In this document: positions 7,949 to 38,389 of the stretch, one piece after another
How the letters are laid out: every line of letters begins with the position of its first letter
How positions within the stretch are numbered: position 1 is the stretch's first letter
DNA from: an uncultured Pseudomonadota bacterium
GTDB lineage: Bacteria; Pseudomonadota; Gammaproteobacteria; Steroidobacterales; Steroidobacteraceae
DNA: 64,000 nt
Direction: 5' to 3'
NCBI GenBank assembly: GCA_903879335.1
Contig: CAIRLC010000019.1
Span: forward strand, 62,001-126,000
Position numbers and translations under genes: made by a program
The notes under the pieces: generated by a model
The model's database searches: none
Told to the model about the DNA's origin: nothing
What the model saw: only the letters and a program-made list of their open reading frames with translations

Positions 7949-9224
7949 GCGCGCCCTGCAACCGCGACACTAGGCTGCGTAAGAACACTTTATTGAAGTG
8001 CAACTGACAGGCCGGCGAGGCCTGTTCAAGCCGCGTCGATGAAACACGCAGCACCGTAACAGGCCCCTCGGCCCGGATCGTGGCTTGACGACGCGCGCCA
8101 CTCAGACAGGCCGCTTCACCAAAACAATCGCCCGCGCCTAGTCTGCCGATCAGCGCGTCGTCTTTATGTACGGCCAGGGCGCCCTCTATCGTGACGTAGA
8201 AGCGGTCTTCGATTTCACCCTCACGCACAAGGTCGGTACCAGGCTCATGGACCTCCCAGTCACTGGCCCGCAGAATTTCAGTGATTTCTGCATGACTGAA
8301 TTCATGGAAGAACGGTAAGCGCCGCAAGCGAGCGAAATGCTCCTGCTGATCGACTTGATCAACTTGTGCGCGAAATTTCTGATGTACGCCCGTTAGGGCC
8401 GCAGCCAAATCTTGCCCAGAGGCATAACGTTTCTCGGGGTCTTTAGACAGAGCCGTCATCACCACGGACTCAAGCTCCTCAGGTACCCCATCGCGCAGCG
8501 TATGGATGGGTGCCGGCGTCGCGTACACAATCTGGTGCATCAGCTTTGCAAGGTTAGCGCCACGAAAAGGCCTCACCCCGGTCAACAACTCATACATGAC
8601 TGCGCCGAGCGAATAAATATCCGACCGGTTGGACAAACTCGCTGATTGCACCTGTTCAGGAGACATGTAAGAGGGACTGCCCGCAATCCCTTCAATGCTG
8701 GACCCAATACCATTGGGGCCAAGCGCAATCCCGAAATCGATGATTCTCAATTCGCTTTGAACATTCAGCATGAGATTCGACGGTTTGATATCCCGATGAA
8801 TCACGCCCCGGCTGTGGGCATAGGCCAATGCACGAGCACCCTTGTAGGCAATCTCAACCACGGCATCCGGCGGCAATAGGTTGTCTTCGCGGCAGTAAGT
8901 CGCCAATGTTCGTGCGCCATACACGAACTCACTGACGATGTAACAGTGACCCTCCTCCTCGCCGGCATCGTAGATCGGCAAGATGTGCGGATGCTGCAAC
9001 AAACCAACGAGATGTGCCTCGGAGAGAAACATCTGTCGTGACACGCGGTGGCGTATGGGGTCTGCAGGGGTCGTCGGGTGATAGACCTTAATCGCCACAT
9101 CACGACGGAAGTAGGGATCATGGGAAAGATAGACGGTGCCGGTCGTCCCACGCGCAACCTCTTTGATGATTTCGTACTTACCAATGCGCTGCAGGGGGAC
9201 ATCCGCCCTGAAAGGCTCTGGCAA
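7935..9224 (-). CDS. Ser/Thr protein kinase with C-terminal cyclic-nucleotide-binding domain
   Basis: This 429-residue soluble protein joins a Hanks-type kinase (about residues 15-280) to a cNMP-binding domain (about 300-425). Kinase landmarks: glycine loop RGTTGTVY, Lys46 in VAIKVY, catalytic HRDIKPSN (Asp145), DFG (Asp163), SPSYMSPEQ and the APE-like region. The C-terminal half has REGEIEDRFYVTIEG, FGEAACLSG and ARRQATIRA, which correspond to the phosphate-binding cassette with its Glu and Arg, so ligand binding is plausible. No transmembrane segment is seen. The start is a TTG with a poor ribosome site and no better in-frame codon upstream. Its substrates are unknown. Confidence 0.9.
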   Translation of the reverse strand: MPEPFRADVPLQRIGKYEIIKEVARGTTGTVYLSHDPYFRRDVAIKVYHPTTPADPIRHRVSRQMFLSEAHLVGLLQHPHILPIYDAGEEEGHCYIVSEFVYGARTLATYCREDNLLPPDAVVEIAYKGARALAYAHSRGVIHRDIKPSNLMLNVQSELRIIDFGIALGPNGIGSSIEGIAGSPSYMSPEQVQSASLSNRSDIYSLGAVMYELLTGVRPFRGANLAKLMHQIVYATPAPIHTLRDGVPEELESVVMTALSKDPEKRYASGQDLAAALTGVHQKFRAQVDQVDQQEHFARLRRLPFFHEFSHAEITEILRASDWEVHEPGTDLVREGEIEDRFYVTIEGALAVHKDDALIGRLGAGDCFGEAACLSGARRQATIRAEGPVTVLRVSSTRLEQASPACQLHFNKVFLRSLVSRLQGAPKRD

Positions 9225-9366
9225 AGGGTACGTCTCAGCATTGGACGAGGACGGCGAGATGGCGGACTCCCAAACGCGTGACGGGCTATGGAGTTTCGAA
9301 GCCGCTGCAGATTACCGTGCAAGGAAATGTCAAAACGTGCGCTATCTCTCGTTTTCTGGCCGTCTC

Positions 9367-10332
9367 TCAGGTTGGCGAGAAATGGTCCCACCCGCGAGGC
9401 AACGGGATCTCACCACGCTCAGCCAGCACCCTCACGCCCTTACCTGCAACGATTTCACCGATACAGTGGCACGCGGGTGCACCCACTTTGGCGGCGAGCG
9501 CTCCGATTTGAGCGCGTGCACTCGGTGGGGCGGTAAACAGCAGCTCGTAGTCATCTCCGCCGGCCAAGGCATAGCCCCGAGCTGCATTCTCGCCGGCGAG
9601 CGTATAGAGCGCACGCGAGAGCGGCAGTTCGCGCGCACGGATCACTGCACCCACACCAGACGCGGCTGCGATCCGGCCTAGGTCCTGAGCGAGTCCATCC
9701 GAGACGTCAACGCAGGCACTGGCAACGCCTCGTAGACCTTGACCGAACGCGACTCGAGGCTCTGGATGGCGAAACTTGTGCTCCAACGCACCCCGATTGG
9801 CACCGTGACCTTCCAATCGGCCTTGCAGCAACGCCAAGCCCGCTGCCGCATCTCCGGGCCAGCCCGTGACGTAGACCAAGTCGCCGGGACGCGCGCCACT
9901 GCGGCGTAAGGCGGTGCCAGTTGGGACAAAGCCCATGGCCGATACCGACAGCGTCATCGGCCCACGGGTGGTGTCACCCCCGACCAGTGCCACGCCAAAT
10001 TGCGCGGCGAGTTTGCCGAGTCCACGGGCAAAACCGTCAACCCACTCCTCATCGAGTTCTGGCAGGGTCAACGCCAGCATCGCCCAAGCGGGGACCGCCC
10101 CCATCGCCGCCAGGTCGGATAAGTTCACCGCCAAGGCTCGCCACCCAATGTCGTACGCGTCAGCGTCCATCGGGAAATGACGACCCTCGACCAGGGTGTC
10201 TACGCAGGTGACGAGTTCGTGGCCGGCCGGAACCTGCATGATCGCCGCATCATCTCCAACACCCTGAGTGACATCGCGACGCGTGGCACCCAGAGCCGCA
10301 AAGAACCGGTCGATGAGCTCAAATTCGCCCAT
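9367..10332 (-). CDS. thiL: Thiamine-monophosphate kinase
   Basis: This 321-residue enzyme phosphorylates thiamine phosphate to thiamine diphosphate, the cofactor of Dxs in this window. Family marks are GVGDDAAIM near residue 25, CVDTLVEGRHF, AVNLSDLAAMGA, VGGDTTRG, DVSDGLAQDLGR and ALAGGDDYELLF. It starts 14 bp after nusB, in the usual nusB-thiL order. pgpA, often next, is absent; the following gene is the unrelated kinase 143 bp away. Confidence 0.95.
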   Translation of the reverse strand: MGEFELIDRFFAALGATRRDVTQGVGDDAAIMQVPAGHELVTCVDTLVEGRHFPMDADAYDIGWRALAVNLSDLAAMGAVPAWAMLALTLPELDEEWVDGFARGLGKLAAQFGVALVGGDTTRGPMTLSVSAMGFVPTGTALRRSGARPGDLVYVTGWPGDAAAGLALLQGRLEGHGANRGALEHKFRHPEPRVAFGQGLRGVASACVDVSDGLAQDLGRIAAASGVGAVIRARELPLSRALYTLAGENAARGYALAGGDDYELLFTAPPSARAQIGALAAKVGAPACHCIGEIVAGKGVRVLAERGEIPLPRGWDHFSPT

Positions 10333-10346
10333 TGCCGGCGCCCCGC

Positions 10347-10796
10347 TTAGAGATCGCGCTCGTGCGGCCGCAGTTCGCCGGCTGCCCGATCGAGCACGCC
10401 ATTGACGAACTTGTAGCCATCCGTTGCGCCGAAGCGTTTCGCGAGATCGACCGCCTCACTGATCGCTACCCGGAACGGCACATCCAACCGATGCTGCAAT
10501 TCGTAAAGCGCCATCCACAGGATGCCATGCTCGATGGGATCCAGATGTTTAGGCTCGATATCTGAATAGCGCTCCAGTAAGGCGTCCAGGGCTTCGCGCT
10601 GCTGCGCCACGTTCATTAATAATTCGCGCAAGTACTCCATATCTGAACCTTTCGATTCAGGATCGAGCGCGTATTGATGGTAGACGTCCTGCCACGGATG
10701 ACCGCCCACCTGCATCTGATACAGCGCTTGCGCGAGCACTTTGCGCGCGCCGCGGCGCGCCCGTGATAACTGACGGACCTCAGACTCGCGGCCCAT
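10347..10796 (-). CDS. nusB: Transcription antitermination factor NusB
   Basis: This 149-residue all-helical protein binds boxA RNA with NusE (S10) during rRNA antitermination. ARRGARKVLAQALYQMQ at the N-terminus and the C-terminal RVAISEAVDLAKRFGATDG with FVNGVLDR are diagnostic. Its ATG overlaps the ribH stop by one base (TAATG), so it is coupled to ribH. Confidence 0.96.
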   Translation of the reverse strand: MGRESEVRQLSRARRGARKVLAQALYQMQVGGHPWQDVYHQYALDPESKGSDMEYLRELLMNVAQQREALDALLERYSDIEPKHLDPIEHGILWMALYELQHRLDVPFRVAISEAVDLAKRFGATDGYKFVNGVLDRAAGELRPHERDL

Positions 10797-30526: not shown

Positions 30527-33500
30527 TTAGGCAACGGTCGGCTGCGCCGGCCGTTCAGACAAAATCACCGCCAACGCGTTGATCAATCGATCGGCAGCCG
30601 CACGATCAAATGTCAGCGGTGGGCGCACTTTCACGATGTTGTTGTCATGCCCTTCGGTACCGACCAAGATGCGATGCTCGCGCAAACGTTCGACCACGTA
30701 ACTCGTCTGTATCGTTGCCGGTGTGCGAGCCTGTCGATCATCGACAAATTCGATGCCGAGAAACAACCCGTGGCCGCGTACATCGCCGATCAACGCGCAG
30801 TCGTCGGCTAAGCGCCTGAGGCCCGCAAGCAGGTAAGCACCCACATCACGCGCCCGATCCATTAAATGCTCGTCGTCCACAATCGCCAACACCTCGCGGC
30901 CTACGGCACAAGCGACCGAAGAGCCGCCAAAGGTGCTGAAGAATTCCATGCCGTTTGCAAAGGCATCGGCAATCGCCCGCGTGGTTACGACCGCCCCAAT
31001 GGGATGGCCATTGCCGATAGGCTTGCCGAGTACCACGATATCTGGGACCACGCCCTGGCCTTCGAATCCAAAGAACCAGTGTCCCAATCGGCCAAACCCC
31101 GTCTGCACTTCGTCCGCTATACACAAACCACCCGCGGCACGGACGCGAGCGTAGACGTCAGCCAGATAACCCTCCGGCGGCACGATCTGACCGCCGACTG
31201 AAGGCAAGGTTTCAGCAATAAACGCAGCCAGTCGACGGCCGTCCTCCGTTAGTCGATCGATGAGATCGCCGACCGCTGCCGCATAGGCCGCACCGGATGC
31301 CGGTCCGCGGAAAATCCCGCGATATGGATCCGGCAACGGTGCCACATGCACCCACGGCTCAGGTCCGGTGCCGCCTTTTCCGGCGAATTTGTAAGGGCTC
31401 AACGCGATCGCGGTGTTCGTGTTGCCGTGATATCCCTCTTCGAGCACGATGGTCTCGCGTGCGCCGGTGTAGGCACGGGCCAAGCGGATCGCGAGTTCAT
31501 TGGCTTCGGAGCCGGAATTCACAAAGAAGACGACTTCCAGTGGCGAGGGAAATCGTGCCGCCAATGCGTCACCGTAATCCAAGTGCACGTCCTGCAGATA
31601 GCGCGTATTGGTTTGCAGGAGCCGCGCCTGCTCCGCAAGCCGAGCCACTAAGCGTGGATGACAATGGCCGACCTGCGGCACATTGTTATAGGCATCGATA
31701 TATTCTCGTCCCCACACATCGTAGAGATGATGTCGGATGCCTCGTACGGCACTGATCGGCTCTTGATAGGAGGTCTTCAGATTGTGCCCAAATCGATGCC
31801 GGCGACGCTCTATCCGCACGACGTCGTCCGTCGGCCGACCGTCAATCACCTGCGGATCAAGACCCAATAGCACTGCCGGATTTGGATACAAGGCCAGCCA
31901 CGCAGCGAGTCCGTCCGGTGAGGCTACGCCCGGCCAATCACTGCCTCGACCCAGATGGGTCAGTCCGAGTTGCAAATGCAGATGGGCGGGCCAGCCCCCA
32001 TTTTCATCGGGTGCTCCGACCGCCCCAATCGGCTCCCCTGCCAAGACGCGCTGCCCGCGGACGTGCCGCAAGCCTGCATCATGGGCTAGATGACCGTAGA
32101 GGGTGTAAAACGCGGTGCCATCCGTCGTGCGGTGTTCAAGCACAACAACGCCGCCATAATCGAGTTCATCGGGCCGTATGGCCATATCGAGTATCACGCC
32201 ATCGTAGGGCGCGCACACAATGCTGCCGGCAGGGACAAACACATCCAGTCCCAAATGCACCGTTCGGCGGTCACGGCCAGTCGCAGTCTCGGTCACAAAC
32301 GCAGGCGCCGTGTAGATTAGCCGCGGCTCCGCGTAGCGGCCGATGGCGATCCCTTCCACCGCGATCGCATCGACATGGCGCTCCAGCGCAGCCATCTCAA
32401 AGCGTTGTGGATCATCGGGCGAACCGTCACCACCAATCGATAAATTTACGACTGGCGCTTTTGCCAGCGGCAGCGACAAGATCGGGGCCGGCACGTTCAT
32501 GGCAAGGTGCGATTCAACGACCGGAAGCGAAGGGAATCCCGTCAAACCACAGGCGAGCCTTAATCGGGCATGCACATAATCTTCGGGCCACAGCGCGCTT
32601 TGTTCGAGGAACATCCAAGCGCCCTGTTCTGACACCACCACGTAGGGGTCATCCGGACGTGCCAATTTCCCCAACCCACTGTTGGTCACGCTGACCGCGA
32701 GTCGCGTCAACAGCAGCGGCCAAAGCAATTCGATCTCTTCCTCACTGAGTGGTGCGACCTGATGCACACCGGCGACATACGCCGATAGCAAATCGATAGG
32801 ATTCGCAACCTCCAAAACCAGATAGGCCGCCGCAATAGCCAGGTCGGCCACGCGCGCGCCGGGGATCAAATCGCCAAAATCAAGCAACCCGGACACCGCG
32901 ACCTCATTGCCGCGTGCGGCCACGAGGAAATTATGGTCGTTAAGATCATTGTGGACAGCGATATGAGGCAGGCGGGCCAAGCGACCCTTCAACTCGGTCA
33001 CAAAGCGCGCAGCAATGCCATCGACAAGCAGGCGCCGTGCCGGCGCCGTGATCGCTTCAGGGTGACCCACAATCCAACCAGCCGCCCCGAGATCCCACTT
33101 GGTCGGACGCGCAAGAGCGCTGTGCTCAAAGCTTTTGAGCGCTTGACCGAGCCGACCATGGGCGACGCCGATCGCTCTGGCCAATGACGCCGACTTGGGT
33201 CGCTCATGGGCATATAGGTGGCCTGGAAGAGCCGTGATGAGCCATGCCAAGCGCTGTACGCCATCAGCGTTCGTGACTGAAACTTGATCAGTCCCTGCTA
33301 TCGTCGGGACGACTGACGGTACCGGGAGGGATGGATCGTGGGCGTGCACGTGGTGCAACACGCGACACTGAAGGTCAACAAATTCAGCCGCACAATCTGG
33401 CCGCATGATCTTGAGCACGAAGGCTCGTTGACCAGCGACGTTGACCATAAAATTTTGATCGTATTCGCCGGGCAACGAACTCAGACTGCCCTGAATACCC

Positions 33501-33580
33501 CAATAACGGAAGAGCAGAGCCGCGGCAAACTCGGTATCGAGACCCGAATCATCCTGCTTGAAGACAATGTCATCAGCCAT
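30527..33580 (-). CDS. Three-domain fusion: APH-type kinase, M23 peptidase, class III aminotransferase
   Basis: This 1017-residue protein has three parts. Residues 1-345: aminoglycoside-phosphotransferase/hydroxylysine-kinase fold with the Brenner motif HNDLNDHN (His210) and DFGD. Residues 420-560: M23 metallopeptidase with His442-x3-Asp446 (HLGLD) and His533-x-His535 (HLH), so zinc ligands are intact, plus YGHLAH. Residues 585-1010: class III PLP enzyme with NSGSEANE, DEVQTGFGRLG and Lys853 in LGKPIGNGHP. The outer domains resemble human HYKK and ETNPPL/PHYKPL, a kinase and a phospho-lyase acting on the same amino alcohol. A kinase-then-lyase pathway in one chain is inferred. AGGGG precedes the ATG at 33580. 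Confidence 0.9.
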   Translation of the reverse strand: MADDIVFKQDDSGLDTEFAAALLFRYWGIQGSLSSLPGEYDQNFMVNVAGQRAFVLKIMRPDCAAEFVDLQCRVLHHVHAHDPSLPVPSVVPTIAGTDQVSVTNADGVQRLAWLITALPGHLYAHERPKSASLARAIGVAHGRLGQALKSFEHSALARPTKWDLGAAGWIVGHPEAITAPARRLLVDGIAARFVTELKGRLARLPHIAVHNDLNDHNFLVAARGNEVAVSGLLDFGDLIPGARVADLAIAAAYLVLEVANPIDLLSAYVAGVHQVAPLSEEEIELLWPLLLTRLAVSVTNSGLGKLARPDDPYVVVSEQGAWMFLEQSALWPEDYVHARLRLACGLTGFPSLPVVESHLAMNVPAPILSLPLAKAPVVNLSIGGDGSPDDPQRFEMAALERHVDAIAVEGIAIGRYAEPRLIYTAPAFVTETATGRDRRTVHLGLDVFVPAGSIVCAPYDGVILDMAIRPDELDYGGVVVLEHRTTDGTAFYTLYGHLAHDAGLRHVRGQRVLAGEPIGAVGAPDENGGWPAHLHLQLGLTHLGRGSDWPGVASPDGLAAWLALYPNPAVLLGLDPQVIDGRPTDDVVRIERRRHRFGHNLKTSYQEPISAVRGIRHHLYDVWGREYIDAYNNVPQVGHCHPRLVARLAEQARLLQTNTRYLQDVHLDYGDALAARFPSPLEVVFFVNSGSEANELAIRLARAYTGARETIVLEEGYHGNTNTAIALSPYKFAGKGGTGPEPWVHVAPLPDPYRGIFRGPASGAAYAAAVGDLIDRLTEDGRRLAAFIAETLPSVGGQIVPPEGYLADVYARVRAAGGLCIADEVQTGFGRLGHWFFGFEGQGVVPDIVVLGKPIGNGHPIGAVVTTRAIADAFANGMEFFSTFGGSSVACAVGREVLAIVDDEHLMDRARDVGAYLLAGLRRLADDCALIGDVRGHGLFLGIEFVDDRQARTPATIQTSYVVERLREHRILVGTEGHDNNIVKVRPPLTFDRAAADRLINALAVILSERPAQPTVA

Positions 33581-33621
33581 CTCGATCCCCTCACGCCACG
33601 GCGTGTTCACCCAACTTCAGC

Positions 33622-34440
33622 TTAAACGTCCACTCGCTCTACGACCGCAGCCTGAATGGGCCGCCCAAGAAACAAACCACCGACCCGTGCAAAACGCTCC
33701 GGGCTATCCGTGGCTAAAAAGGTTGATCGTCCGCGCTGATCTGCAGAGGCTGGATCAGACTGAATGAGCGCGGCAACCGCCGCCGCGGTCGTTTGGGCGG
33801 AATCGACGATCGACACCCCCGCAGGAACGATCGCAGCGAGCGTCCGGCGGAGCAATGGAAAGTGGGTACAACCGAGCAATAGCGTATCCGGTGCATCGTC
33901 ACGATTGAACAGATCACCCAAATACCGGCGGGCGACGCGTTCGGCGATATCACCCTCGCCCCAACCTTCCTCGGCTAAGGCCACGAAGACAGAACATCCG
34001 ACGGCCATCACGGACGCGTGAGCATCCAACTGTGCGATTGCGTTCTGGTACGCGCCTGCTCTGACCGTGCCTTCTGTGGCAAGCACCACAATGCGCCGAT
34101 TGCGCGTCACGGCCACCGCCGCCTTTGCACCCGGGCTGATCACGCCAACGATAGGCATATCTGGATAGGCCTGCCGCAAGGCCGGCAATGCCGCGGCAGA
34201 GGCCGTATTACACGCGACGACCAAAGCCTTGACGTGCCGAGCCACCAACGCGGCTGCACACTGCAAGGCGTAGCGTTCGACGCTCGCTGCGCTCTTCGTG
34301 CCGTAGGGCAAGCGCGCGGTATCCCCCAGATAAACGAAGGATTCTGTCGGCAATGCCTGCTCAAGGGCGGCGAGCACGGTGAGCCCGCCGACCCCTGAAT
34401 CAAATACCCCGATCGGACGAGGCTCAGCCGAGCGCGACAC
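33622..34440 (-). CDS. murI: Glutamate racemase
   Basis: This protein of about 272 residues supplies D-glutamate for peptidoglycan. Sites are [13 protein letters not shown] (catalytic Asp), [13 protein letters not shown], the catalytic Cys in VACNTASA, and [10 protein letters not shown] (second Cys). The start is uncertain: no ATG fits the family, and GTG codons at 34440 and 34470 both lie within the end of purL. I chose 34440, which overlaps purL by 17 bp. The domain itself is complete. Confidence 0.92.
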
Positions 34441-37400
34441 GGGCGTTGCGGAACATCCGGAGCCAACCACCGTCGTCGGTCCAATCCGTCGGACGCCATG
34501 AATTCTGCGCGGCACGGTAGACCCGTTCAGGATGTGGCATGGTCAAGGTGACCCGCCCGTCAATCGAGGTGATCCCGGCAATGCCGTGAGGCGAACCATT
34601 CGGATTACGCGGATAAGTGGTCGCCACGCGCCCGTAGTGATCGACATAGCGCATGACCGTCCCGTGGCCAGCGAGGAATGCGCGCTCCGCGGCCTCCGAA
34701 CTGAACACCGCGCGGCCTTCGCCGTGACTGACGGCAATCGGCATCACCGATCCTGCCATGCCGCTAAAGAACGGCGACTTCGATGCCGTCACTTCAACCA
34801 AGGTGAGGCGAGCTTCAAACTGTTCGGAGCGATTGCGCTTAAAGCGTGGCCAGTGGGTGGTACCCGGGATCAACTCAGCCAGCGCGGCTAACATTTGGCA
34901 ACCGTTGCAGACACCCAAGGTCAGCGAGTCTGCGCGCTCAAAGTGGCGAGAGAACTCGTCCCGTGCCCGACTATTAAACAGAATTGATTTCGCCCAGCCT
35001 TCACCCGAGCCCAGCACGTCACCGTAACTGAAGCCACCCACGGCCACCACGACCGGGTAGTCCGCCAGGGTGACAGCGCCACCAATGACATCGGTCATGT
35101 GCACGTCATAGGGATCGAATCCCGCTCGCGCAAATACCGCCGCCATTTCGAGTTGGCTGTTGCAACCTTGCTCGCGCAGTACAGCCACTCGCGGCCGAGC
35201 GCCAGTGGCGATATAAGGCGCCGCCACATCGTCGCTGTGATCGTAGGTCAGGCGCACGGAAAGACCCGGATCTGACGCATCAGCCACGTGATCGTATTCC
35301 TCCTGGGCACAGGTCGGATCATCACGACGGGCACGCATCTTGAAGCTGGTCTGCGACCATGCGCTCGCCAGATCAACGATCGCTTCATCAAGCACATCGC
35401 GCTCATTGGCCCGGATCACGAGGCGCTGGGCTACGGTCGTACGACCGATCACCCGAGTCAGGGAACCCACGCCCTCCGCCACAAAGGCAGCCAAGACGGC
35501 ATCGACATCGCTCGCGGCGACTTCAAGCACCATGCCGGGCTCTTCCGCATACAGCGCTGCGACTGGATCTCGGACCGGCCCGAGGTCCACAGCCATGCCA
35601 ACGTGGGATGCGATGCCCATTTCGGCCAAGGTCACAAAGAGGCCACCGTCGGAGCGATCGTGATAGGCACGAACCCAGTCGCGCCCAGCGACCCCACGCA
35701 GGGCGCGGAAGGCGCCTGCCAAAACCTCTGGACTGTCCAGATCCGCCGCCCGATCGCCGAGCACGCCGTAGACCTGCGCCAAACACGAGCCGCCCAATCG
35801 GTCTTTACCGGCCGACAGATCAACCAGCACCAAAGCAGACGACCCGTCCTTACCCTTTAATTGCGGGGTCAGCGTCTTGCGAGCATCCGCCACGGGCGCA
35901 AATGCCGAAACAATCAACGAGACGGGCGACCAGACCGATCGGTCACCCTCCGGCGACTTCCAGCCGGAGCGCATCGACAGCGAGTCCTTACCGACTGGGA
36001 TCGCGATCCCAAGAGCCGGGCACAACTCCATACCGACCGCTCGAACCGTGTCGTACAGCGTGGCGTCTTCTCGAGCATCACCACAGGCCGCCATCCAGTT
36101 GGCCGACAAACTGATATCGGACAACTGCCGAATGTCAGCCGCAGCGATGTTCGTAATCGCCTCAGCAACCGCGAGCCGACCCGAGGCCGGGCCGTCGATG
36201 AGCGCGACCGGTGTGCGCTCACCCATCGCCATGGCTTCACCCGCATGCGTCGTATAACCCGCGAGCGTCACTGCACAGTCACTCACCGGGACCTGCCACG
36301 GACCGACTAACGAATCTCGACTGACCATACCGCCGACGGTACGGTCACCGATGGTGATCAAAAAAGTCTTGTCAGCCACCGTGGGCAATCGCAGCAGTCG
36401 ATAAGCGGCTTCCCGCGCGTCGATGGCATCCGTGGCGATCGCCTCGACGGCGCGCGGCACGCGACTCGCCACGCGGCTCATGCGCGGAGCTTTGCCCAAC
36501 AGCACTTCAATGGGCATTTCCACCGGTGCTTCGCCAGTGCGCGGATCTGAGACGACCAACTGGCCATCGTCGGTGATCGTACCGACCACCGCCGCCGGAC
36601 AGCGTTCACGACGGCAGAACCCCATGAAAGTCTCGATCTCTTCGGGCGCAATGCACAGCACGTAACGCTCTTGAGCTTCGTTACACCACAACTCAAGCGG
36701 AGACAGACCTGGCTCGTCCGTAGGAATCGAGCGCAGATCGATACGGCCGCCACGATCACTGTGCGCAATCGCTTCGGGAATCGCGTTCGACAAACCGCCC
36801 GCGCCCACGTCGTGGATCAGAATGATCGGATTGCGATCTCCGAGCTCCCAACAGCGATCGATGACTTCTTGGGCCCGACGCTGCATTTCCGGGTTGCCGC
36901 GTTGGACCGAGGCAAAGTCCAAGTCCTCGGTCGAGGCGCCACTACCAACCGACGAGGCAGCACCACCGCCTAGACCGATGAGCATGGCCGGGCCACCCAA
37001 GACGACGATTTTCGCGCCGGGCGGGACCTCGCCCTTCTCAACGTGATCGCGACGCACGTTACCAAGGCCACCGGCCAACATGATCGGCTTGTGATAGCCA
37101 CGGGTCACGCCAACCGGATCGCCGGCCACCCGCTGCTCGTAGGTGCGGAAATAGCCGAGGATTCCGGGGCGGCCGAATTCATTGTTAAAGGCAGCGGCAC
37201 CGAGCGGCGCCTCGATCATGATATCGAGAGGCGATGCGATGCGGGCTGACTTTGCTTCAGGGCCTTCCCAAGGCTGCTCGAACCCGGGAATGCGTAAATT
37301 AGAGGTCGTAAATCCGGTGAGGCCGGCTTTGGGCTTGGCGCCACGACCCGTTGCCCCTTCATCCCGGATTTCACCGCCCGAGCCTGTAGAGGCTCCTGGG

Positions 37401-38311
37401 AACGGCGAAATTGCGGTCGGATGATTGTGCGTTTCGACTTTCATGAGAATGTCGATCGGCTCGTGACTGGCGCGATACGCACGAGTCTCAGGATCCGCAA
37501 ACCACCGTTCCGCCACGGTGCCGGCAATCACGGATGCGTTGTCACGATAGGCCGACAACACGGCGCCTGGGTTTTTCTCATGCGTATTACGGATCATCGC
37601 AAAGAGCGACTTATCCATCGCTTCGCCGTCGATCGTCCACGACGCATTAAAAATCTTGTGACGGCAGTGCTCTGAGTTCGCTTGCGCAAACATCATCAGT
37701 TCGACATCCGTCGGATCGCGCGCTAATTTTCGATAAGCCGCAACGAGGTAATCGACCTCATCCGGCGATAGCGCCAATCCGAGTCGACGATCGGCCGCCA
37801 TGAGCGCTGCGCGCCCATCGTCACCCAACTCAACCCGCGCCAACGGGCGAGCAGACTCATCTCGAAATAACTGGGCCGCAGCCTCAATCGAAGGCAACAC
37901 CGCTTCAATCATTCGATCATGCAAGGGCGCCGCCAGGTTGGCGATGGCTTGCGCACTCAAGGTGTGGGTGGCGCGCAGGACATACACGGTCCCGCGCTCA
38001 ATGCGTCGAACGGTGCTAAGACCGCACACGTGAGCAATGTCCGTCGCTTTCGTCGACCAGGGCGAGAGGGTACCCGGCCGCGGGGTGACGACGAGGTGGA
38101 CAGCGCCACCGGGCAATGCCGGCGCTGAATGCGATTCGAGCAAGCGCTCGAGGACCTTCGTTTCACTCGCCGATAACGGCGCAGACAGGTCAATGAAATG
38201 AGTGAAATAGGCTTCGACACCCTCGACCGTTGGGTCGATCGCTCGTAGAGCTACGAGGAGTTTGTCGAGACGGAAATGGGGAAGGGCCGAAGCCCCGGGC
38301 AACACCAGCAT
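34424..38311 (-). CDS. purL: Phosphoribosylformylglycinamidine synthase
   Basis: This 1295-residue single-chain enzyme performs the fourth purine step: FGAR to FGAM with glutamine and ATP. The N-terminal and two AIR-synthase-like halves are followed by a C-terminal glutamine amidotransferase (about 1035-1295) with the nucleophile in LGVCNGCQM and the catalytic HPE in [22 protein letters not shown] and [12 protein letters not shown] are also visible. The length equals that of proteobacterial large PurL. The ATG at 38311 gives [13 protein letters not shown], matching the family start. Confidence 0.97.
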
Positions 38312-38389
38312 CGGACACTCGGACTTGAAGCCGGCCAAGGCCGGCAGACGCGCAGTCTACCTCACCTCACCCCTCCACCGGTGATCGGC

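What the first reader, a model, noticed from the sequence alone, without database searches (positions are those of the whole stretch)
30527..33580. Single 1017-residue chain with kinase, M23 peptidase and class III aminotransferase domains, all with intact catalytic motifs
The kinase and aminotransferase parts resemble the hydroxylysine kinase and the phospho-lyase acting on phosphoethanolamine or phosphohydroxylysine, so they may form a phosphorylate-then-eliminate route in one protein. The M23 peptidase between them has its H, D and H-x-H zinc ligands. An outer-wall-type peptidase inside a cytoplasmic enzyme is unexpected and its role is unclear. Related bacterial fusions may already be recorded; the substrate is not known to me.
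Basis: partly seen in the sequence, partly recalled or inferred. Interest (0 to 1): 0.8.

Follow-up and report, generated by a model that had tools for sequence, protein, structure and literature searches.

The report
Three-in-one hydroxylysine breakdown enzyme
This bacterial protein joins a small-molecule kinase, a zinc peptidase and a vitamin B6 lyase in one chain, and the genes found beside some of its relatives suggest it breaks down hydroxylysine, the modified amino acid of collagen, although no activity has been measured.

Summary
In detail: one uninterrupted 1017-aa ORF (minus strand, ATG at 33580) carries APH kinase, M23 peptidase and class III PLP domains, modelled confidently as one unit (pLDDT 92.3, pTM 0.91). 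It belongs to an already named but functionless family, NF004799/PRK06148 (1252 bits, cut-off 1128). All five M23 zinc/catalytic positions are intact in the 86 distinct proteins aligned, window included, and in 14 further distinct ones. In 7 of 7 sampled members of the sister family PRK06149 the M23 region has decayed and at least four of the five are lost. Some relatives lie beside L-piperidine-6-carboxylate dehydrogenase, saccharopine dehydrogenase-like genes or beta-galactosidases. This points to 5-hydroxylysine, plausibly from collagen glycopeptides. These markers were absent from 18 loci of a separate clade, two of which have an ethanolamine-permease-like neighbour. Best reading: kinase, then phospho-lyase, on hydroxylysine giving aminoadipate semialdehyde. 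The M23 domain probably frees hydroxylysine from imported peptides; that step is inference. Only 9 of 102 loci carry a marker, and the window's own carries none.

The parts
30527..33580 (-). Complete fusion gene, 1017 aa (ATG 33580; upstream in-frame GTG at 33610), member of NF004799/PRK06148
   Evidence: GAGGGG before the ATG seen
32546..33523 (-). Kinase domain, about residues 20-345 (APH fold; K57, H210-x-D212...N217, D234-F-G-D237)
   Evidence: APH 36-255; residues; boundaries chosen by me with the model
31841..32350 (-). M23 peptidase domain, about residues 411-580 (H442, D446, H497, H533, H535)
   Evidence: 441-538; residues
30554..31807 (-). Class III PLP phospho-lyase-like domain, about residues 592-1009 (PLP lysine K853)
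33622..34515 (-). Asp/Glu racemase family gene (murI-like), directly upstream on the same strand, 41 bp before the ATG; a homologue is also upstream in two close relatives (G007: L005/L031, and G010: L012), so possibly co-transcribed
   Evidence: the name murI is recalled, Pfam gives only Asp_Glu_race

Best explanation
The protein is a cytoplasmic three-domain enzyme for using 5-hydroxy-L-lysine. The kinase domain phosphorylates the 5-hydroxyl with ATP (inferred). The PLP domain eliminates phosphate and then ammonia, giving 2-aminoadipate 6-semialdehyde (inferred). That product cyclises to piperidine-6-carboxylate and is oxidised by L-piperidine-6-carboxylate dehydrogenase (P6CDH), which this genome encodes on another contig. 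The M23 domain is an active zinc hydrolase (intact residues shown, activity inferred) that most likely cuts imported short hydroxylysine-containing peptides, such as glycine-rich collagen fragments, to free hydroxylysine for the kinase. In some relatives glycosidases next to the gene would first strip galactose or glucosyl-galactose from glycosylated hydroxylysine.
For: Lyase domain nearest to characterised phospho-lyases, not transaminases. P6CDH beside the gene in separate lineages: L140 (split kinase and lyase, next gene on the same strand, 795 bits over cut-off 730); L210 (kinase-lyase fusion, gap about 60 bp, 824 bits, with a LacZ-type beta-galactosidase directly upstream and galT and galK within 7 kb); the genome of L072 (G460) 6.8 kb away (786 bits with two stops in the frame) and intact in its relative G458 (L206/L220); G500/L230, 7.1 kb away (802 bits). 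In L072 and G458 it lies in an island with an aminotransferase, a 2-oxoacid dehydrogenase E1 and an acyl-CoA dehydrogenase (glutaryl-CoA dehydrogenase model 214 bits, below cut-off 470); E1 homologues (73-80% id) also lie 6-8 kb from the fusion in L046, L047, L055, L058, L084, and the acyl-CoA dehydrogenase (79%) in L050. Saccharopine dehydrogenase-like genes (by Pfam domain in L209; 56-60% homologues in L231 and L232), whose route makes the same semialdehyde, are close to the kinase-lyase gene. CUT1 transporter, MGH1-like glycosidase and GH42 beta-galactosidase lie with the three-domain gene in both Sinorhizobium meliloti (L111) and G500 (L230). P6CDH is in 4 of 102 loci of this type, 0 of 18 of the other clade and 0 of 7 PRK06149 loci. 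In 159 genomes, one per genus, 12 of 21 with a fusion match have P6CDH against 31 of 138 without (one-sided Fisher p = 0.0017). M23 residues intact in 86 distinct proteins plus 14 more.
Against: The window locus has none of the marker genes nearby; the function is carried over from relatives. At least one marker is seen in only 9 of 102 loci, many of which are close kin, and the baits came from four of those nine (L140, L210, L209, L111). P6CDH was taken as a marker after it was seen in L140; after that, L072 and L210 are two finds where 0.44 was expected (P of two or more about 0.07). L230 was fetched because its P6CDH was known to be near; L231 and L232 came from a follow-up in the order of L209 and L210. 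P6CDH is a common lysine enzyme (45 of 60 genomes). The aminotransferase and acyl-CoA dehydrogenase of L072 fall below every curated cut-off, so the glutaryl-CoA label is weak. GH2 and GH42 beta-galactosidases and galTK may serve other galactosides. Deep branch order in the lyase tree is weak (92/81 and lower); the kinase of the L171- and L230-type proteins is only 32-34% identical to the window's. Nothing here shows peptidase substrate or activity.
Confidence: 0.6

Rival explanations
1. The kinase-lyase pair acts on ethanolamine (phosphoethanolamine) or another simple amino alcohol, as the human ETNPPL does, and not on hydroxylysine.
For: The best PDB match is ETNPPL. Split lyases of the second clade have an ethanolamine-permease-like APC gene beside them (236 and 246 bits, below the cut-off 381.75; L144, L153, and a partial homologue at L017).
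Against: Those lyases lie in a separate supported clade (15 rows, 100/97) at 41-48% identity to the window's lyase. Some fusion-type relatives carry lysine-route genes instead, and no fusion locus searched had a homologue of that permease.
Confidence: 0.15
2. The M23 domain works on peptidoglycan or recycled cell-wall peptides; the racemase gene upstream hints at a cell-wall link.
For: M23 enzymes are mostly wall hydrolases (PMC9662197, passages only). A murI-like gene sits just upstream in the window and two close relatives. Structural neighbours are EnpA, lysostaphin and LytM.
Against: No signal peptide is seen by eye (no predictor was run). The racemase neighbour cluster holds three genomes only (the window's own, G007, G010). 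The domain sits between two cytoplasmic enzyme domains in the same order throughout the family.
Confidence: 0.1
3. The M23 domain is a structural or regulatory spacer without peptidase function.
For: Seven of seven PRK06149 proteins keep a decayed M23 region between kinase and lyase with at least four of five ligand positions lost, so the scaffold alone can be kept. Kinase-lyase fusions without it exist.
Against: In the three-domain family the ligand positions did not vary in any protein aligned, and two free-standing M23 copies also keep all five.
Confidence: 0.15
4. The substrate is hydroxy-diaminobutyrate from hydroxyectoine, giving aspartate semialdehyde.
For: One locus (L090) has the fusion amid genes whose Pfam domains resemble EutB, EutC and EutE, with an amino-acid ABC transporter (the Eut names and the transporter label are mine); the chemistry would fit.
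Against: Only one such locus was seen. In the Sinorhizobium meliloti ectoine cluster the aminotransferase is a plain 458-aa protein, and the EutE-like gene at L090 is far below the family cut-off (248 against 402.7 bits).
Confidence: 0.05

Closest known systems
NCBIfam NF004799 (PRK06148), subfamily model named 'hypothetical protein'
   Same: Same length and domain order; the window scores 1252 bits over a cut-off of 1128
   Different: Nothing in the match; the family has no function assigned
NF004800 (PRK06149), 'aminotransferase', 972 aa
   Same: Same kinase-middle-lyase layout; window hit 730 bits
   Different: Window is below its cut-off of 973; in 7 of 7 sampled members (1603-1649 bits) at least four of the five M23 positions are lost
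Human hydroxylysine kinase (HYKK) with 5-phosphohydroxylysine phospho-lyase (PHYKPL), Veiga-da-Cunha et al. 2012
   Same: Proposed two-step chemistry
   Different: Separate proteins in humans, no peptidase domain; this is recalled, the paper was not held and was seen only as a reference in PMC8154272
Ethanolamine-phosphate phospho-lyase ETNPPL (6tor) and Arthrobacter phospholyase (5g4i)
   Same: Fold of the C-terminal domain, TM-score 0.95 and 0.93 over the target, and the lysine in GKP
   Different: Single domain; proposed substrate differs
M23 peptidases lysostaphin, LytM, EnpA, zoocin A
   Same: Fold and profile match; the best sequence match is 8s3m, named lytic endopeptidase
   Different: Those are secreted or phage lytic enzymes (recalled and from titles); this one lies inside a protein without an evident signal peptide. 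TM-scores are only 0.36-0.65 over the target because the query holds extra segments

Membership tests
NF004799/PRK06148 | Full-length score above curated cut-off | tested here: met
   1252.1 against 1128 bits, residues 13-1009
NF004800/PRK06149 | Full-length score above curated cut-off | tested here: not met
   730.5 against 973 bits
M23 peptidase | Pfam score above gathering cut-off and zinc/catalytic residues present | tested here: met
   48 against 28.7 bits; H442, D446, H497, H533, H535
M23 peptidase | Zinc-dependent peptide hydrolysis | not testable with these tools
   needs purified protein
APH-type kinase (hydroxylysine kinase) | APH fold with the conserved catalytic and metal-binding positions | tested here: met
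   Pfam APH 75.7 against 23.2 bits; K57, D212, N217, D234, G236, D237 in 88 of 88 rows; the roles of the residues are recalled
APH-type kinase (hydroxylysine kinase) | Activity on 5-hydroxylysine | not testable with these tools
   context evidence only; no PDB sequence match for the kinase part at E 0.1
Class III PLP phospho-lyase | PLP lysine and closer to phospho-lyases than to transaminases | tested here: met
   K853 in 88 of 88; 6tor 403 bits and 5g4i 297 bits, next 186 bits
Class III PLP phospho-lyase | Phosphate and ammonia release | not testable with these tools
   needs assay
Ectoine cluster aminotransferase Atf | Is Atf itself a kinase-containing fusion of this family? | tested here: not met
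   The aminotransferase in the Sinorhizobium meliloti eut cluster is a plain 458-aa protein; in Leisingera G061 the class III match near eutE covers only lyase positions 607-1007

The most novel reading that the evidence does not exclude
A trifunctional cytoplasmic enzyme that takes collagen-derived hydroxylysine peptides, cuts them with a built-in M23 peptidase, phosphorylates the freed hydroxylysine and converts it to aminoadipate semialdehyde in one polypeptide. Linked gene clusters in alphaproteobacteria, including Sinorhizobium meliloti, add a sugar transporter, an MGH1-like glycosidase and a beta-galactosidase to use glucosyl-galactosyl-hydroxylysine.
Probability: 0.35. Interest if true: 0.78.

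Novelty: new variant of a known kind. Interest (0 to 1): 0.6.

Why it matters
It gives a testable function to a widespread protein family that databases call hypothetical or aminotransferase. It points to a bacterial hydroxylysine route, possibly for glycosylated collagen hydroxylysine, and to an M23 peptidase that would work inside the cell on small peptides, outside its usual role in the cell wall. Its pairing with an intact or a decayed peptidase in sister families offers a natural comparison of what the extra domain does.

Tried and rejected
Ectoine idea: that the aminotransferase of the ectoine cluster is this fusion was tested in Sinorhizobium meliloti and rejected; the L090 locus stays as one odd case. 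A search with an L090 neighbour as bait led to four regions opened, three of them annotated; none was the ectoine cluster or held the fusion.

P6CDH co-occurrence in near relatives proved useless as a test because the enzyme is almost everywhere there (45 of 60); the wider family test was used instead. In that test a fusion match means E up to 1e-250 (21 genomes, 19 over the family cut-off) and P6CDH means E up to 1e-150; kinship between genera was not corrected for.

Operon neighbours of the named loci gave no partner shared across distant groups: the commonest neighbour clusters span at most 15 loci, mainly Ruegeria and kin. The search with NF004799 at E 0.001 rings in 14 of 14 control genomes because of the common aminotransferase domain, so only strong matches were used later.

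Selection bias: loci L031-L110 were found with patterns that include GHL and HxH, so invariance of H497, H533 and H535 in that set is partly built in. H442 and D446 are not in the patterns. The 13 sequences and the 15 fusions came from profile or tblastn searches and are free of it. The 88 rows include the window and hold 86 distinct sequences (L005 = L031, L003 = L032), and they contain most of the 13. Of the 15, L176 is the same protein as L072 and L175 is 99.6% identical to it, so 14 are new.

The marker test used baits taken from L140, L111, L210 and L209, and identity limits of 40-45%, so more distant enzymes would be missed; glutaryl-CoA-route genes were not part of it.

No paper on a kinase-M23-aminotransferase fusion was found: one search returned none, and of 801 papers only the 20 listed rows were looked at. 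None of the rows listed (capped lists of 7, 28, 182, 1 and 194 papers) describes bacterial hydroxylysine breakdown by this route as far as titles and abstract starts tell. That library is partial. Papers seen: passages of PMC8154272, PMC5924519, PMC13188858, PMC8739950, PMC8626586, PMC9662197; search listings only for the rest; nothing of the 2012 hydroxylysine kinase paper, the 2015 terminal-amine paper or two phospho-lyase structure papers (not held).

Full report
What is there. The finding is real but lies on the minus strand: one ORF from 33580 (ATG, with GAGGGG just before it) to 30527, 1017 aa. Pfam gives APH kinase, Peptidase_M23 and Aminotran_3, all over their cut-offs. NCBIfam already has this layout as NF004799/PRK06148, named hypothetical protein; the window scores 1252 bits against a cut-off of 1128. 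So the architecture is recorded and the function is not. A prediction from 56 aligned proteins gives mean pLDDT 92.3 and pTM 0.91, so the three domains are well formed and probably fixed in relation to each other.

Spread. Over its cut-off the family is found in 6 of 60 near genomes (own included), 10 of 398 genomes of the phylum (own included), 19 of 159 genomes of one family, that of G460, and 0 of 148 of the order of G388. A pattern scan of named genomes kept 80 loci, its limit, out of 584 confirmed stretches, among them Ruegeria, Microvirga, Desulfobacteraceae and Chloroflexota. Of 1883 plasmid records with any match, 91 hold a match over at least 80% of the protein; the listed ones are from Ruegeria, Tritonibacter, Shinella, Sinorhizobium/Ensifer and Ciceribacter.

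Catalytic residues. In 88 aligned full-length proteins (86 distinct, window included) the M23 positions H442, D446, H497, H533, H535, the kinase positions K57, D212, N217, D234, G236, D237 and the lysine K853 never vary; H210 is H in 85 of 88. For H497, H533 and H535 part of this is selection, because most loci were found with patterns holding them. The sequences and 15 fusions found by profile or tblastn (14 of them new) show the same five M23 residues. Mean pairwise identity in the M23 region is higher than in the kinase (0.56 against 0.47). In pairs with unsaturated synonymous change the M23 domain shows dN 0.146 against dS 0.63 (L032/L004), 0.018 against 0.97 (L066/L071), 0.008 against 0.053 (L035/L038).

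Architectures. Besides kinase-M23-lyase there are kinase-lyase fusions of about 780 aa, adjacent separate kinase and lyase genes, one kinase-M23 protein without lyase (L024/L152), and two free-standing M23 proteins with all five residues (L110, L151). Seven proteins of about 960-980 aa are confirmed PRK06149 members (1603-1649 bits, cut-off 973). They keep a recognisable remnant of the M23 region between kinase and lyase, but four of the five positions are lost in 7 of 7 and D446 is kept in only 3 of 7. So the peptidase residues are under selection in one family and have been lost in the other.

What the lyase is. The C-terminal domain is nearest to human ethanolamine-phosphate phospho-lyase and to the Arthrobacter phospholyase, by sequence (403 and 297 bits; next 186) and by fold (TM-score 0.95 and 0.93 over the target). 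A careful tree of 62 lyase domains puts split lyases and some M23-less fused ones in a separate clade of 15 rows (100/97); two of these loci (L144, L153/L020) have an ethanolamine-permease-like neighbour. The window sits in a supported set of 15 three-domain proteins (100/98) that includes L072. Deep order between groups is weak.

Which substrate. Some relatives outside that separate clade carry lysine-route genes. L140: the gene after kinase and lyase is L-piperidine-6-carboxylate dehydrogenase, P6CDH (795 bits, cut-off 730). L210: LacZ-type beta-galactosidase, kinase-lyase fusion, then P6CDH about 60 bp on (824 bits), with galT and galK further off; L209 and L212 also have the beta-galactosidase directly upstream. 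L072 and its relative G458 (L206, L220): the three-domain gene lies next to an island of aminotransferase, acyl-CoA dehydrogenase, 2-oxoacid dehydrogenase E1 and P6CDH, the last with a broken frame in L072 and open in G458. The acyl-CoA dehydrogenase and aminotransferase stay below all curated cut-offs (glutaryl-CoA dehydrogenase model 214 of 470 bits), so 'route to glutaryl-CoA' is my reading. E1 homologues (73-80%) lie 6-8 kb from the fusion in five more loci (L046, L047, L055, L058, L084) and the acyl-CoA dehydrogenase (79%) in L050. L209, L231, L232: a saccharopine dehydrogenase-like pair near the kinase-lyase gene, divergent and within about 130 bp in the last two. L111 (Sinorhizobium meliloti) and L230 (G500): CUT1 transporter, MGH1-like glycosidase and GH42 beta-galactosidase with the three-domain gene, plus P6CDH about 7 kb away in L230. 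These fit one picture: hydroxylysine, in some cases glycosylated as in collagen, taken to aminoadipate semialdehyde. That collagen carries glucosyl-galactosyl-hydroxylysine was seen in passages of PMC8626586.

How strong that is. P6CDH occurs in 4 of 102 loci of this type (1849 kb, many of them close kin), 0 of 18 of the ethanolamine-like clade and 0 of 7 PRK06149 loci. With one gene per 4.2 Mb, 0.44 would be expected among the 102. But P6CDH became a marker because it was seen in L140, and L230 was fetched because searches had shown the two genes close together; that leaves L072 and L210 as unselected finds (two or more by chance about 0.07). In 159 genomes, one per genus, P6CDH is present in 12 of 21 with a fusion match and 31 of 138 without (p = 0.0017, not corrected for kinship). 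Of those 12, the two genes lie within 8 kb in two genomes, G460 (the genome of L072, known before) and G500 (new), and 35 kb apart in G537. Any marker occurs in 9 of 102 loci, four of which supplied the baits. The window's locus carries none; its genome does encode P6CDH elsewhere. The case rests on several different lysine- and galactose-related neighbours agreeing more than on any one count.

The peptidase. The best sequence match in the PDB is a lytic endopeptidase (8s3m), followed by M23 enzymes such as zoocin A and lysostaphin; the nearest folds are EnpA, lysostaphin and LytM. The M23 review lists pseudoalterin as cutting Gly-Gly/Ala and desmosine-containing elastin bonds; its held text has no mention of kinase or aminotransferase (PMC9662197, passages). 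Collagen peptides have glycine after hydroxylysine (recalled), so a peptidase that cuts beside glycine could free hydroxylysine. Two indirect hints fit. The beta-galactosidases beside M23-less kinase-lyase genes begin with a signal-like stretch, whereas the GH42 beside three-domain genes do not (judged by eye), as if breakdown were outside in one case and inside in the other. And near PRK06149 genes with a dead M23 there are peptide-type ABC transporter genes in three genomes (L211, L213, L214) and a separate S58 peptidase in one (L213); in the family-f21 genomes the neighbours differ, so this hint is weak. The peptidase role is inference.

Verdict. Observation confirmed; the phosphorylate-then-eliminate reading is supported by relatives, with hydroxylysine the likely substrate; the peptidase step is plausible and untested.

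Noticed in passing
L139 (G000:C13:18000-37000), 8028-10621: The window's own genome has a second, separate kinase and lyase pair (31% and 40% identical) whose lyase falls in the other clade, without M23, next to an amidohydrolase gene; the same trio is in L145 and L146.
   Followed up: partly
L183, L185, L186, L194-L197: PRK06149 proteins hold a decayed M23 region with lost zinc ligands between kinase and lyase.
   Followed up: yes
L110:5943-6764 and L151:7841-8623: Free-standing M23 genes of this type; L110's lies beside a 2OG-Fe(II) oxygenase, an amidohydrolase and a sodium symporter gene.
   Followed up: partly
L152:8022-9749 against L158:8124-11111: In two related genomes with similar flanking genes, one has kinase-M23 only and the other the full three domains; the lyase part is missing in the first.
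   Followed up: partly
L090:1582-14756: The fusion sits among EutB-, EutC- and EutE-like genes with an amino-acid ABC transporter and an inositol-monophosphatase-like gene; substrate unexplained.
   Followed up: partly
L072:18610-20019: P6C dehydrogenase gene with a broken frame next to an intact fusion; open in the related genome G458 (L220).
   Followed up: partly
window 33622-38338, minus strand: purL-like, then murI-like, then the fusion on one strand; a murI-like neighbour was seen in only two other genomes.
   Followed up: partly
L236:11008-12114 and L238:8266-9372: An agmatine-deiminase-like gene (named from recall) lies next to the PRK06149 gene in two family-f21 genomes, hinting at a different substrate there.
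   Followed up: no
G065 (genome of L099): C11:209055-212066 and C26:78341-81349: One genome holds two copies of the three-domain gene, both over the family cut-off.
   Followed up: no
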